Shown: positions 57,945 through 63,281 of the stretch, piece after piece
Layout of the letters: each line of letters opens with the position of its first letter
How positions within the stretch are numbered: position 1 is the first letter of the stretch
NCBI RefSeq assembly: GCF_022012295.1
Contig: NZ_JAKLTN010000001.1
Coordinates: forward strand, 124,001 to 188,000
Length of the DNA: 64,000 nt
From: Dechloromonas hankyongensis
GTDB lineage: Bacteria; Pseudomonadota; Gammaproteobacteria; Burkholderiales; Rhodocyclaceae
Direction of reading: 5' to 3'
Program-made: the position numbers and the translations under genes
Notes under the pieces: generated by a model
Databases searched by the model: none
What the model was told of the DNA's origin: nothing
What the model saw: the letters and a program-made list of their open reading frames with translations, nothing else

Positions 57945-58775
57945 ATGGCCACTTACGCCATCGGCGACATCCAGGGCTGCTACGACTCGCTGGAAAGGCT
58001 GCTGGCGCTGTGCGCCTTCGATCCGACCCACGACCGCCTGTGGCTGGTCGGCGACCTGGTCAACCGCGGCCCTAAATCGCTGGAGACGCTGCGCCTGATC
58101 AAGTCGCTCGGCCCGGCGGCGATGACGGTCCTCGGCAACCACGATCTCTACCTGCTGATGGTCGCCGAAGGCGGCGCCAAGTTCCGCGGCAAGGACGACA
58201 CGCTGCAAGCCATTTTTGACGCCCCGGATTGTGCCGAATTGCTCGACTGGCTGCGCCACCAGCCGCTGTGCCACACCGAGGGCCCGTATTGCCTGGTGCA
58301 TGCCGGACTGCTGCCGCAATGGACGGCTGCCCGCGCCCGCGAACTGGCCCGGGAAGTGGAAGCCGCCTTGCAAGGACCGGACTTCCACGAATTTATCCTG
58401 AATCTGTGGGGCAGCGAACCGGCCGCCTGGTCGGACGATCTGACCGGCTGGCCGCGCCTGCGCGTCATCGTCAACGCCATGACCCGCATGCGTTTCTGCA
58501 CGCCGGACGGCGCCATGGAATTCAAGGCCAAAGGCAAGTTGAGCAACGCGCCGGAAAACCACCTGCCGTGGTTCAACTTGCCCAACCGCCAGTATGCCGA
58601 TTCGGTGCTGGTCACCGGCCACTGGTCGGCGCTCGGCCTGAAAGTTACACCGAACTTTCTCGCGCTCGACTCAGGCTGCCTGTGGGGCGGCCATTTGACG
58701 GCAGTTCGCCTGGAAGATCGGCGGGTGTTCCAGGTGGATTGCTCACCATCGGAAGCCCAGCCCCCAAAGCGATAG
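57945..58775 (+). CDS. apaH: Symmetrical diadenosine tetraphosphatase ApaH
   Basis: A 276-residue PPP-family metallophosphatase that hydrolyses Ap4A to two ADP and removes Np4 RNA caps. The metal motifs are IGDIQGCYDSLERLL, LVGDLVNRGPKSLETL and VLGNHDLYLLMVAEGG. A late His is in GHWSALGLK. Length matches E. coli ApaH. It starts 4 bases after glmS. Its last 131 bases overlap the 3' end of olsA on the other strand, an unusually long convergent overlap. Confidence 0.95.
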   Translation: MATYAIGDIQGCYDSLERLLALCAFDPTHDRLWLVGDLVNRGPKSLETLRLIKSLGPAAMTVLGNHDLYLLMVAEGGAKFRGKDDTLQAIFDAPDCAELLDWLRHQPLCHTEGPYCLVHAGLLPQWTAARARELAREVEAALQGPDFHEFILNLWGSEPAAWSDDLTGWPRLRVIVNAMTRMRFCTPDGAMEFKAKGKLSNAPENHLPWFNLPNRQYADSVLVTGHWSALGLKVTPNFLALDSGCLWGGHLTAVRLEDRRVFQVDCSPSEAQPPKR

Positions 58776-59490
58776 CCTCGCGGGCCTGAGCCGCGACTTG
58801 CTTGCGGTCCTCGCCGTTCAAACCGCGCAAGGGCGTGGTCACCAGCCGGGCGATCAGGCGCTTGCGCCCCAGTATGGCCCGCGTGCATTGGCCCAGCGAA
58901 ATATCGCCGTCGTAGCGCGGCGCCAGGCTGCGCTGGCCATCGAGTTCCCAGTAGGAAATAGCCACCGGCAGCACCGGGTGCCCGGCACTCAGCGCCGGTT
59001 GCAGCAGCGCGGCGTGAAAATGCAGCAGACTACGGCCGTCGGTCGTCGTGCCCTCGGGGAAGACGGCGACATGGCGCCCCTGGTCGAGCAGGCCGGCAAT
59101 TTCCTGATTGATGATTTTGGCGTGGCCACGGCTGCCACGGCGCAGGAAGATGGTGTCGTTCTTCGCCGCCAGCCAGCCGATCAGCGGCCAGTGCCGGACC
59201 TCCTCCTTGGACACGAAGGCCGCCGGCAAGGCGGCATTGATCACGTAGATGTCGATCCACGAAATGTGATTGGCCACGATCAGGGCGCCGGGAACCGCGT
59301 GGGTCAGATCAGCCTCGACTTCGACGCCCAGCGCGTCGAGCAGCGCCGCCGCCCAGCTCGCCTTCAGGCGCCGCCGGGCCGCTTCGCCGCAGATCGGAAA
59401 AGCCAGCAGCGTGACGATGACCGCGCTGCAAACGAGCAGGATAAGGCGAAAAATCCGAAAGGCGCGGAGCGCAAAGTTGGTTTGGTTCAG
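58645..59490 (-). CDS. olsA: Lysophospholipid acyltransferase, OlsA-like (ornithine lipid synthesis)
   Basis: A PlsC-family acyltransferase that would add the second acyl chain to lyso-ornithine lipid. It has an N-terminal membrane helix (IFRLILLVCSAVIVTLLAFP), the HX4D motif in IVANHISWIDIYVINAAL, KNDTIFLRRGSRG and AVFPEGTTTDGRSLLHFHAA. The start is uncertain. No ATG, GTG or TTG falls between a TTG at 59601 and the membrane helix; a CTG at 59490 overlapping the olsB stop (CTGA), with AGGG upstream, is preferred and would give 281 residues. The C-terminal tail is Pro/Ser-rich and overlaps apaH by 131 bases. Confidence 0.8.
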   Translation of the reverse strand: MNQTNFALRAFRIFRLILLVCSAVIVTLLAFPICGEAARRRLKASWAAALLDALGVEVEADLTHAVPGALIVANHISWIDIYVINAALPAAFVSKEEVRHWPLIGWLAAKNDTIFLRRGSRGHAKIINQEIAGLLDQGRHVAVFPEGTTTDGRSLLHFHAALLQPALSAGHPVLPVAISYWELDGQRSLAPRYDGDISLGQCTRAILGRKRLIARLVTTPLRGLNGEDRKQVAAQAREAIALGAGLPMVSNPPGTPADLPGELPSNGRPTGSLSRARESSV

Positions 59491-60248
59491 TCTGATTGCC
59501 CTAAGTAGTGCTTGGCGTAACGTCCGGCCACCTTGGCCATCGGCATCAGGATGGGCAGGTCGGCCGTATTGAAATCGGGATCCCAGGCCGGTTCGCCGCA
59601 AATCCAGGCCCCAGCACGCAGGTAACCCTTGATCAGCGGCGGCACTTCGGCCGGACGATCCTGCTGTAGCGCCGCCAGGGGCAGCGGGCAGCGCGGAAAG
59701 ACGCGGTACTCCTGCGGCCCGAGGTGATCGGCAGCCAGACGATTATACAAGCTGGCCGCAGCATGCCCGCCATCGGCCATACTGATCGACGCGCAGCCCA
59801 TCAGGTAGTCGTAGCCGCGCTCGACCATGTATTGCGCCAGGCCGGACCACAGCAGCGTGATGGTGGCGCCGGTACGATAGTCTGGATGGACGCAGGAGCG
59901 GCCGATTTCGACCAGACGCGAACGCAGGTGCTGCAGGCGAGTCAGGTCGAACTCGTTTTCCGAGTAGTAACCGATCTGGCGCGCGTTGTCCGGCGACAGG
60001 ATGCGGTAGGTGCCGACGATCTCGCCGCTCTGCGTGTCGCGAACGACGAGGTGTTCGCAATAGGGGTCGTAGATGTCGTGATCGACGCCCGGGGTGCGAC
60101 TGGGCAGGTTGGCGCCCATCTCACCGGCGAAGACGCGATAGCGCAGGCGCTGGGCGTCGAGGATGTCGCTCTGGCTGCGGGCAAAACCGACGGCCAGGCT
60201 TCTCTTTTCGGGGCGGACGCGTCCGGCACCCTTCTGGATATGTTCCAT
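59487..60248 (-). CDS. olsB: L-ornithine N-alpha-acyltransferase OlsB
   Basis: A 253-residue GNAT-fold acyl-ACP-dependent enzyme for the first step of ornithine lipids. It has AQRLRYRVFAGEMGANLP, HDIYDPYCEHLVVRDTQSG, VEIGRSCVHPDYRTGATITL, YDYLMGCASISMADGGHAA and PPLIKGYLRAGAWICGEPAW, all typical of the OlsB/PlsC-linked hemolysin-like group. It is paired with olsA (4-base overlap), so both steps are present. Ornithine lipids replace phospholipids under phosphate limitation or stress in many bacteria. A long perfect hairpin covers its ribosome site and start codon. Confidence 0.9.
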   Translation of the reverse strand: MEHIQKGAGRVRPEKRSLAVGFARSQSDILDAQRLRYRVFAGEMGANLPSRTPGVDHDIYDPYCEHLVVRDTQSGEIVGTYRILSPDNARQIGYYSENEFDLTRLQHLRSRLVEIGRSCVHPDYRTGATITLLWSGLAQYMVERGYDYLMGCASISMADGGHAAASLYNRLAADHLGPQEYRVFPRCPLPLAALQQDRPAEVPPLIKGYLRAGAWICGEPAWDPDFNTADLPILMPMAKVAGRYAKHYLGQSD

Positions 60249-60287
60249 CTTGTTCTCCTTAGTTTCCTGGAGAACAAGTCTGGAACA
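60241..60287 (-). promoter_or_regulatory. Hairpin sequestering the olsB ribosome binding site and start codon
   Basis: On the minus strand CTTGTTCTCC (60278–60269 complement) pairs perfectly over 10 bp with GGAGAACAAG around a 10-base loop AGGAAACTAA. The second arm contains the GGAG Shine–Dalgarno. The helix extends through TGTTCCA pairing with TGGAACA, where the second copy includes the ATG GAA CA start of olsB. Only a 1–2 base internal loop separates the two helices. This would mask both ribosome site and AUG; a protein-binding operator is the alternative reading of the same palindrome. Confidence 0.75.
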
Positions 60288-60345
60288 GCCATGTTACACG
60301 CGCGTTGCCTGCAGGTGACGCCGCCGTGTCAGCACAATCGAAGCC

Positions 60346-61278
60346 TTACCAGGGCAGGGCGCCGAAGGCCTTGCGGTAGCGCTCGCCGATTTCCTCGCGG
60401 CTGGGCTGGTGATTCTGACCGCCGCGATGGGCGATCTTGATCGCCCCCATGACGGCTGCCAGGCGGCCGGTGGTCGGCCAGTCGAAACCGTTGGCGATGC
60501 CGTAGAGCAGGCCGGAACGATAGGCGTCGCCGCAGCCAGTCGGATCGACGATCTGTTCGGCTTCGACACAGGGAATGTCGTAACGCTGGCCGTTGGCGTA
60601 GATCTCCGAGCCTTCACCGCCGCGCGTCACGATCAGTGCCTTGACCTCGCCGGCCAGCTGTTCGAGGCTGCGGCCGGTACGGTCGCACAGCAGCTTGGCC
60701 TCGTAGTCGTTGAAGCAGGCGAAATCGGCCAGACGCATGAAATCGAGCAGCTCGTCGCCGTTGAACATCGGCATGCCCTGGCCCGGATCGAAGATGAACG
60801 GCACGCCGGCATCGGCAAAGTCGCGGGCGTGCTGCATCATGCCTTCGCGGCCGTCCGGCGCGACGATGCCGAGCTTGGCGTTGGCCTTGGCCACCTTGTT
60901 CAGGTGCGAAAAGCTCATCGCACCCGGGTGGAAGGCGGTGATCTGGTTGTCGTCGAGGTCGGTGGTGATGAAGGCCTGGGCGGTGAAGCTGCCCGGCACC
61001 TGGCGCACGTGGCTTCGCGGCAGGCCCAGCGTGTCCAGGCGGTCGAGGTAAGGCACGGCATCGTCGCCGACCGTCGCCATGATCGTCGCGTCGCCGCCGA
61101 GCAGCATCAGGTTGTAGGCGATGTTGCCGGCACAACCGCCGAATTCGCGGCGCATTTCGGGAACCAGGAAAGCCACGTTCAGGATGTGGATCTGCTCGGG
61201 CAGGATGTGGTTCTTGAAGCGGTCCGGGAAGACCATAATGTTGTCGAAAGCGAGCGAACCGCAGATGAGAGTAGTCAT
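60346..61278 (-). CDS. PfkB-family carbohydrate/nucleoside kinase
   Basis: A 310-residue ribokinase-superfamily kinase. It begins TLICGSLAFDNIMVFPDRF and has EFGGCAGNIAYNLMLLGGDA near residue 45, VTRGGEGSEIYANG, and the ATP/anion-hole signature IVDPTGCGDAYRSGLLYGI with its catalytic Asp. The sequence resembles adenosine kinase-like and ribokinase-like members; the substrate cannot be fixed. It lies 6 bases after the DUF3426 gene and ends the accC–prmA–DUF3426–kinase run. A 97-base gap separates it from olsB. Confidence 0.88.
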   Translation of the reverse strand: MTTLICGSLAFDNIMVFPDRFKNHILPEQIHILNVAFLVPEMRREFGGCAGNIAYNLMLLGGDATIMATVGDDAVPYLDRLDTLGLPRSHVRQVPGSFTAQAFITTDLDDNQITAFHPGAMSFSHLNKVAKANAKLGIVAPDGREGMMQHARDFADAGVPFIFDPGQGMPMFNGDELLDFMRLADFACFNDYEAKLLCDRTGRSLEQLAGEVKALIVTRGGEGSEIYANGQRYDIPCVEAEQIVDPTGCGDAYRSGLLYGIANGFDWPTTGRLAAVMGAIKIAHRGGQNHQPSREEIGERYRKAFGALPW

Positions 61279-61284
61279 GGGGTA

Positions 61285-62390
<1,106 letters not shown>

Positions 62391-62391
<1 letters not shown>

Positions 62392-63281
62392 CAGGGCCTG
62401 GTCCCGCTCAGGCATACCCAGTCCTCACGTACATCGGCCACCTGCAGCGGAATCCATTGCGCATAGATGGCCACGATTTCATCCACCTGCTCGCGCAGGA
62501 TGCCCGATAAGGCCAGCCACCCGCCGGAGCGGACATGGGCGCAGATGGCCGGAGCCAGGACGCGCAGCGGATTAGACAGAATGTTGGCCACGACCACATC
62601 ATACTCGCCGGCAACCGGCACGGCCGAGTCGGCGAAAAGTGCCGTCACGCCGTTGCGTTCGGCGTTGGCCTTGGCGGCCTCGACCGCTTGCGGGTCGATA
62701 TCGACCCCGGCGACATGGCCAGCGCCCAGACGGGCAGCGGCGATGGCCAGGATGCCCGAACCGCAACCGTAGTCGAGTACCGTACAGCCATCGGCAACGT
62801 TGCGCTCCAGCCACTCCAGGCACAGCCGAGTGGTCGGATGGGAGCCGGTGCCGAAAGCCATTCCGGGATCGAGAATCAGGTTGATCGCCGCCGGATCGGG
62901 CGACTCGTGCCAGGACGGCACGATCCACAACCGCTCGGAAACACGGATCGGATCGAATTGCGACTGGGTCAACTGCACCCAGTTCTGCTCAGCCACCGGT
63001 TCCACGGTAAAAAACGGAACTTCGGCCAGTCCGATGATTTGGGCCGCCTCGCTGAGCACAGCCGCCACGTCGGCATCCGGCTCGAGCAGCACGACGACTT
63101 TCGAACGATTCCAGCCCGGCGTATTGACCGACCCCGGCTCGCCGAATTGCGGCTGCTCGTCCGGCGTACCTGCATCGGCGTCCTCGATGCTGGCCGACAG
63201 CGCTCCCGCCTCAAGCAGGGCGTCGCACATCGGTTCAGCGTGCGACACATCGGTCAGGAAGCTGACATTTTGCCAAGACAT
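62391..63281 (-). CDS. prmA: Ribosomal protein L11 methyltransferase
   Basis: A 296-residue SAM-dependent enzyme that trimethylates ribosomal protein L11. The N-terminal L11-recognition domain (SFLTDVSHAEPMCDALLEAG) is followed by LDPGMAFGTGSHPTTRLCLE, the SAM loop VLDYGCGSGILAIAAARLGA, DIDPQAVEAAKANAERNG, and the NPL substrate motif in VVANILSNPLRVLAP. The start at 63281 is just after the accC stop; an open frame further upstream belongs to accC. It overlaps the DUF3426 gene by one base. Confidence 0.96.

What the first reader, a model, noticed from the sequence alone, without database searches (positions are those of the whole stretch)
60241..60287. Long hairpin buries the Shine–Dalgarno and AUG of olsB
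The sequence shows a perfect 10-bp helix whose 3' arm is the GGAG ribosome site. It is extended by a second 7-bp helix that includes the AUG and next codon, with only a 1–2 base asymmetry between. Such a structure would strongly repress translation until melted or bound. OlsB is known to start ornithine-lipid synthesis, a stress-responsive membrane change, so an RNA thermometer, trans-acting sRNA or metabolite switch is plausible. As DNA it could also be an operator. A weak -10 (TAACAT, 60296–60291) would place the start near 60284, which keeps the inner helix but trims the outer one.
Basis: partly seen in the sequence, partly recalled or inferred. Interest (0 to 1): 0.8.

Follow-up and report, generated by a model that had tools for sequence, protein, structure and literature searches.

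The report
Promoter hidden inside a start-blocking hairpin
The DNA just before the ornithine-lipid gene olsB encodes an RNA hairpin that hides the gene's start signal, but the gene's own phosphate-starvation promoter sits inside one arm of that hairpin, so probably only messages from that promoter escape the block while messages running in from the neighbouring gene stay silent.

Summary
Upstream lie four 11-bp-phased Pho-box half-sites; 10 nt after the last is a -10 hexamer, CAGACT (60282-60277), the geometry of E. coli phoA. A YANNNT hexamer sits at that spacing in 63 of 65 genus-set leaders (Azonexus/Dechloromonas) and in 59 of the 86 (of 96) other leaders with a box. So the Pho start falls near 60271-60268, at the end of the 5' arm. 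Predicted from there, the SD is open; from upstream, SD and AUG are buried. The hairpin should form only on read-through RNA from the co-directional kinase gene. The arrangement recurs with unrelated sequences: a strong, TSS-spanning, SD-burying helix in 24 of 50 non-genus leaders with a co-directional upstream gene (arm-swapped null 3.6), against 3 of 38 with a divergent one (null 1.4). The orientation link is moderate after collapsing relatives (p about 0.01); the tree-paired test was inconclusive. The closest known device is T4 gene e. No transcript has been mapped. Most likely: a promoter-embedded anti-SD that makes olsB translation depend on PhoB.

The parts
59487..60248 (-). olsB (L-ornithine N-alpha-acyltransferase-like), ATG 60248-60246
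   Evidence: Pfam Acetyltransf_5 6.8e-37; best NCBIfam hits are OlsB models 6.6e-52 and 3.7e-50, 176.8 and 171 bits, below their curated cut-offs of 350 and 320
58645..59508 (-). olsA-like O-acyltransferase, overlapping the end of olsB (start about 59508 is my reading of a longer ORF, 58645-59601)
   Evidence: Pfam Acyltransferase 8.2e-25; NCBIfam OlsA models 1.9e-33 and 5.6e-33, below cut-off
60346..61278 (-). co-directional upstream gene, PfkB-family kinase (called adoK here from recall); its stop is 97 bp before olsB
   Evidence: no terminator-like site in 60180-60500
60293..60331 (-). four Pho-box-like half-sites at exact 11-bp spacing: TGACAC 60331-60326, CGTCAC 60320-60315, GGCAAC 60309-60304, TGTAAC 60298-60293
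   Evidence: sequence; similar repeats in relatives; PhoB binding not tested
60277..60282 (-). predicted -10 hexamer CAGACT, 10 nt after the last half-site; overlaps both 5' arms
   Evidence: YANNNT at spacing 10 in 63 of 65 genus-set leaders and 59 of the 86 non-genus leaders with a box (of 96); same spacing in E. coli phoA
60268..60271 (-). predicted start of the PhoB-dependent transcript (A60268 is the first purine after the arm)
   Evidence: inference from the -10 position; not mapped
60269..60278 (-). 5' arm of the inner helix (CTTGTTCTCC), predicted to be mostly untranscribed from the Pho promoter
60249..60258 (-). 3' arm of the inner helix (GGAGAACAAG) holding the Shine-Dalgarno GGAG
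60281..60287 (-). 5' arm of the outer helix (TGTTCCA), overlaps the -10
60241..60247 (-). 3' arm of the outer helix (TGGAACA), last two bases of the start codon plus codon 2 and part of codon 3

Best explanation
Promoter-embedded anti-Shine-Dalgarno gate. RNA that runs into olsB from the upstream co-directional gene carries the whole inverted repeat, folds the hairpin and cannot load ribosomes at olsB (nor, by coupling, at the overlapping olsA). Under phosphate starvation PhoB binds the Pho box and starts a short mRNA at the end of the 5' arm; this mRNA lacks that arm, its SD is open, and OlsB is made. The -10/+1 segment therefore has two jobs: promoter DNA, and anti-SD in read-through RNA. 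Shown computationally: the hairpin, its conservation, the Pho-box/-10 geometry, the pairing between the -10/+1 region and the SD beyond chance in independent lineages, and open versus buried SD on the two predicted RNAs. Inferred: the start site, PhoB binding, the existence of read-through RNA, the silencing itself, olsA coupling.
For: Fixed Pho-box to -10 spacing of 10 nt, identical to E. coli phoA, TGTCAC-N10-TATAGT; a passage states that in E. coli the pho box usually lies near the -10 and replaces the -35 (PMC4971064). Fold from 60268: SD unpaired; from 60270: SD unpaired in the centroid (two pairs CC/GG in the MFE); both z about 0. Fold from 60320 or 60290: SD and AUG buried, -44.9 and -36.9 kcal/mol. 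Matched 5'/SD regions pair better than swapped ones: genus n=42 and non-genus n=51, in each 0 of 20,000 permutations as good; control windows further upstream p 0.22-0.39. In 25 of the 32 co-directional non-genus leaders with helix score >=16 the 5' arm ends 3-11 nt after the -10, with unrelated sequences, e.g. L247 TGCCCTCGTT/AACGAGGGCA, L239 AAGAATCCTC/GAGGATTCTT, L243 TCCTGACTGT/GCAGTCAGGA. Co-directional 24 of 50 strong and TSS-spanning (23 by the null's own scorer; null mean 3.59, max 11 in 200), divergent 3 of 38 (null 1.39, max 5), Fisher 5e-5. Control gene starts show no excess: adoK 4 of 18 at score >=16, null 4.0; olsA 0 of 5, null 0; olsB in the same loci 38 of 52, null 20.5, max 26. 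No terminator-like site between the upstream gene and olsB in the window.
Against: No mapped 5' end, no RNA data. On the predicted short RNAs the last two bases of the AUG still sit in a weak local 4-bp helix (UGGA/UCCA). Of the 50 co-directional non-genus leaders 26 do not meet the criterion; some show no good helix (e.g. L116 9.5, L097 10, L101 12.5), and in L113, L122 and L123 a strong helix has its 5' arm ending 3-7 nt before the last base of the -10. Three divergent leaders meet it (L090, L108, L259); L075 and L202 just miss on position and L085 has a helix further upstream. Collapsing leaders at 75% identity gives 17 of 38 against 3 of 25 clusters (rounded), p 0.012; at 65% the leaders merge into 9 clusters and p is 1. 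Within two OlsB-tree strata the permutation p is 0.011; one stratum alone p 0.027, the other p 0.25. Independent tree pairs: only 5 on supported branches, 2.5 for and 1.1 against on average with the strict rule, 1.8 and 1.2 with a looser one, inconclusive. Terminator presence against hairpin: no significant link. Covariation inside the genus is modest because the arms hardly vary: 6 double-changed cells against a shuffled mean of 1.0, but the +2 and +3 slid controls have 8 and 25; the RNAalifold consensus is weak, -3.4 kcal/mol.
Confidence: 0.7

Rival explanations
1. Leader riboregulator: the induced mRNA starts upstream of both arms and the hairpin is opened by heat, an sRNA, a protein or a metabolite.
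For: Stable conserved SD/AUG-burying hairpin.
Against: The Pho-box -10 predicts a start at the end of the 5' arm; no Rfam family near threshold (the two hits, E 2.1 and 4.8, are far below gathering scores); arm and loop sequences unrelated between lineages.
Confidence: 0.12
2. DNA operator: the inverted repeat over -10/+1 binds a dimeric repressor.
For: It lies over the start region of a regulated promoter, and within the genus the arms are nearly fixed.
Against: CTCC-to-GGAG distance varies 8-13 nt in 56 of 65 genus-set leaders with both words, and arm sequence differs between lineages while complementarity to the SD is kept.
Confidence: 0.08
3. The hairpin protects or processes the 3' end of the upstream gene's mRNA, and the overlap with the SD is incidental.
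For: The hairpin sits soon after the upstream stop codon and is commoner with co-directional neighbours.
Against: It is not terminator-like. The SD overlap was built into my helix scan, so the comparative data do not test this fully.
Confidence: 0.06
4. The arms match because promoter and SD share a base bias; no function.
For: Genus arms vary little, so covariation is limited and two slid controls exceed the true structure on double changes.
Against: Swapped-arm nulls, upstream control windows and control gene starts show no such excess.
Confidence: 0.04

Closest known systems
Bacteriophage T4 gene e (lysozyme); soc, 49 and I-TevI named beside it
   Same: Long early RNAs bury SD/AUG in a hairpin; late promoters lie in the segment encoding the 5' strand of the structure, and their RNAs lack it and are well translated (PMC3014915, passages read).
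   Different: Phage genes with a phage late sigma factor; here a chromosomal lipid operon with a Pho-box promoter, and arm sequences that differ between lineages of a bacterial order.
Bacillus subtilis sigma-B short mRNA isoforms (McCormick et al. 2021)
   Same: A stress promoter yields isoforms translated better than the basal housekeeping isoform (one sentence in PMC8073009; RBS occlusion in the long isoform is recalled, the paper itself was not held).
   Different: Alternative sigma factor, not PhoB; no link to olsB known to me.
IS10/IS50 transposase protection from read-through transcription
   Same: RNA from outside promoters folds over the transposase start signals (recalled; the listings and the passages seen of PMC4265352 and PMC5006887, did not show it).
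   Different: Mobile elements; the inverted repeat belongs to the element end (recalled).
PhoB/PhoR control of olsB in other bacteria
   Same: Pho box before olsB and phoR named as regulator of aminolipid synthesis in Acinetobacter (PMC11828411, passages read).
   Different: The passages seen do not mention a leader hairpin; I did not read the whole paper.

Membership tests
Promoter-in-hairpin translational gate (T4 gene e type) | SD/AUG sequestered in RNA from an upstream start | tested here: met
   folds of RNAs beginning at 60290 and 60320; prediction only
Promoter-in-hairpin translational gate (T4 gene e type) | Internal promoter lies in the DNA of the 5' strand | tested here: met
   -10 60282-60277 overlaps both 5' arms; spacing conserved; prediction only
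Promoter-in-hairpin translational gate (T4 gene e type) | Short RNA has an open SD/AUG | tested here: met
   SD open in folds from 60268 and in the centroid from 60270; last two AUG bases in a weak 4-bp helix; prediction only
Promoter-in-hairpin translational gate (T4 gene e type) | Read-through RNA exists and is poorly translated | not testable with these tools
   no RNA data; no terminator-like site seen
Pho regulon promoter | 11-bp-phased half-sites with a -10 ten nt downstream | tested here: met
Pho regulon promoter | PhoB-dependent induction | not testable with these tools
   needs an experiment
RNA thermometer / riboswitch (Rfam) | Match to a curated family | tested here: not met
RNA thermometer / riboswitch (Rfam) | Both arms in the gene's own mRNA | tested here: inconclusive
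   predicted start removes the 5' arm; not mapped
Intrinsic terminator | Stem followed by a U run | tested here: not met

The most novel reading that the evidence does not exclude
PhoB controls olsB at two levels with one DNA segment: by choosing the start site it also decides whether the mRNA can be translated. This promoter/anti-SD fusion has been kept or re-evolved with new sequences across the order where a neighbour gene reads into olsB, so that -10/+1 sequences are a general place for anti-SD elements in tightly silenced genes.
Probability: 0.45. Interest if true: 0.75.

Novelty: new member of a known kind. Interest (0 to 1): 0.62.

Why it matters
It would give a chromosomal, metabolic example of a device described in phage T4. 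It would explain how a phosphate-starvation lipid gene is kept silent although a neighbour's transcription may run into it. It would also give a sequence rule (Pho box, N10, -10, then a segment complementary to the SD) that can be searched for in other regulons, where such hairpins may be misread as thermometers or operators.

Tried and rejected
Rejected: the -10 at TAACAT (it overlaps a Pho half-site). Rejected: RNA thermometer/riboswitch by family. Disfavoured: fixed DNA operator. Codon-model calling of upstream gene orientation failed on the short glycine-zipper gene (98 right, 19 wrong of 117), so homology and Pfam were used. Weak labels: L065 and L244 rest on Pfam hits below the curated cut-off plus ORF layout; L071, L198 and L236 rest on a reference homologue more than 1.2 kb away. 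Test of terminators against hairpins: not significant. Tree-paired test: inconclusive. Leader clustering at 65% identity: uninformative. Paper searches (listings) showed me no direct precedent in a Pho or lipid gene; search 74 led to the T4 review. Passages of PMC8450116 and PMC5318159 added nothing.

Rows dropped: of 162 genomes with an OlsB match, leaders were fetched for 148. L001 (a duplicate of L002) and L078, L118 and L119 (unclear or no start) were dropped. L254 and L255 failed the start rule, and L245, L250, L252, L253 and L258 were left out for lack of a clear start. Identical leaders were kept once, leaving 161: 65 in the genus set (64 same-genus leaders plus L168, an Azonexaceae record whose genus I did not check) and 96 others, 8 of them without an orientation label. 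One search used 51 of 54 non-genus and 42 of 65 genus leaders after removing near-identical ones. The OlsB tree used 67 rows: 62 non-genus and 5 genus; further non-genus genomes were not fetched because of the download cap.

Full report
On the minus strand the leader of olsB carries CTTGTTCTCC (60278-60269), a 10-nt loop and GGAGAACAAG (60258-60249), flanked by TGTTCCA (60287-60281) and TGGAACA (60247-60241). The fold is far better than 200 dinucleotide shuffles (-36.9 against -21.6 kcal/mol, z -5.1), and the exact inner repeat is unique in the genome. The gene is olsB-like, followed by an olsA-like gene and preceded, 97 bp away and in the same direction, by a PfkB-family kinase. The nearest relatives among named genomes include Dechloromonas and Azonexus; the window itself is not named.

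Relatives show what it is. OlsB was found in 162 of 199 related genomes; leaders of 148 were fetched, and with named genomes and after removing identical or unclear ones 161 leaders were analysed. In the genus set 59 of 65 leaders have a helix of score at least 16 with the 5' arm in the same place. The six that fail are L013, L014, L024, L028, L062 and L067. L062 is the only one of the 65 labelled divergent upstream, and its helix scores 10.5, although its duplex energy is still low (-18.2 kcal/mol). In 59 distinct genus-set rows 95.3% of inner-helix cells pair. Double changes are few: 6 cells, above the shuffled mean of 1.0 but below two slid controls (8 and 25). So within the genus the arms are too constant for a strong covariation argument.

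The upstream DNA is a Pho promoter by pattern. Half-sites like TGTCAT/TGTAAC recur at 11 bp: in the window TGACAC, CGTCAC, GGCAAC and TGTAAC, ending at 60293. Counting a YANNNT hexamer at each distance from the last half-site, without using the -10 to place the box, gave a sharp peak at 10 nt: 63 of 65 genus-set leaders and 59 of the 86 other leaders with a box (of 96), plus 15 of those 86 at 21 nt, one repeat further. E. coli phoA, read from its genome record, has the same spacing (TGTCAC-N10-TATAGT). PhoB/PhoR control of olsB is reported elsewhere, for example in Acinetobacter (PMC11828411, passages). In the window the -10 is therefore CAGACT at 60282-60277 and transcription should start near 60271-60268, at the end of the 5' arm.

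This changes the meaning of the hairpin. RNA begun at 60268 leaves the SD unpaired; begun at 60270 it is unpaired in the centroid, with two weak pairs in the MFE. In both, the last two bases of the AUG sit in a weak local 4-bp helix; overall folding is no better than shuffles (z about 0). RNA coming from upstream buries SD and AUG. No terminator-like site separates the upstream gene from olsB. So the structure should exist only on read-through RNA.

The same layout appears elsewhere with other letters. Pairing between bases -65 to -20 and the SD/start region is better for the true pairs than for swapped pairs in the genus (n=42) and outside it (n=51), each with 0 of 20,000 permutations as good. 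Windows further upstream give p 0.22 to 0.39. Outside the genus, 25 of the 32 co-directional leaders with a helix of score at least 16 have the 5' arm ending 3-11 nt after the -10: L247, L239, L243, L065, L068-L070, L072, L178, L195, L197 and others carry unrelated arm sequences at that place. The start of the kinase gene shows no excess (4 of 18 at score >=16, null 4.0), nor does olsA (0 of 5), while olsB in the same loci has 38 of 52 (null 20.5, maximum 26).

The neighbour matters, with caution. With a co-directional upstream gene 24 of 50 non-genus leaders have a strong TSS-spanning helix (23 by the scorer used for the null; null mean 3.59, maximum 11 in 200). With a divergent gene it is 3 of 38 (null 1.39, maximum 5); Fisher p 5e-5. 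Labels come from homology and Pfam, a few of them weak. Relatedness weakens this: clusters at 75% identity give 17 of 38 against 3 of 25 (p 0.012), clusters at 65% are uninformative (p 1), two tree strata give p 0.011 together and 0.027 and 0.25 apart, and only 5 independent pairs lie on supported branches, 2.5 for and 1.1 against. Terminators beside the upstream gene did not predict hairpin loss (2 of 8 with, 22 of 42 without, p 0.25). I therefore rest the claim mainly on arm position and swapped-pair tests, and treat orientation as support.

What it works like. In phage T4, early RNAs bury the start of gene e in a hairpin, and late promoters located in the DNA for the 5' strand give RNAs that lack it and are well translated (PMC3014915, passages). 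olsB has the same predicted anatomy with a Pho-box promoter. Sigma-B-driven isoforms in B. subtilis are reported to be translated better than basal ones (one sentence in PMC8073009; the primary paper was not held). The parallel with IS10/IS50 is from recall. I file the window as a probable new member of this kind; the decisive RNA features are untested.

Limits. Everything is sequence-based. The start site, PhoB binding, read-through RNA and silencing are inferred. My helix scan required overlap with the SD, so it cannot by itself show that other hairpins are absent.

Noticed in passing
window 62098-62157: Ten copies of a 6-bp repeat (plus-strand unit TGGCTC) that, read on the minus strand, encode an EPEPEP run inside the DUF3426/zinc-ribbon gene 61285-62415.
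   Followed up: partly
upstream of olsB in relatives (L002-L263): The gene upstream of olsB changes by lineage: kinase, glycine-zipper protein, HIT-like protein (the last two named by me from sequence), and by Pfam substrate-binding protein, PhoX, PhoU-like, GidA, ZapD, acyltransferase.
   Followed up: partly
L113, L122, L123: Strong SD-burying helix whose 5' arm ends 3-7 nt before the last base of the -10, still outside the predicted Pho transcript.
   Followed up: partly
L062 / L204 (genus member, G074): A cNMP-binding-domain gene on the opposite strand upstream instead of the usual kinase, and a weakened helix (score 10.5).
   Followed up: partly
L214 and L218, upstream of olsB: PhoX alkaline phosphatase gene divergent from olsB, suggesting a shared Pho control region.
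   Followed up: no
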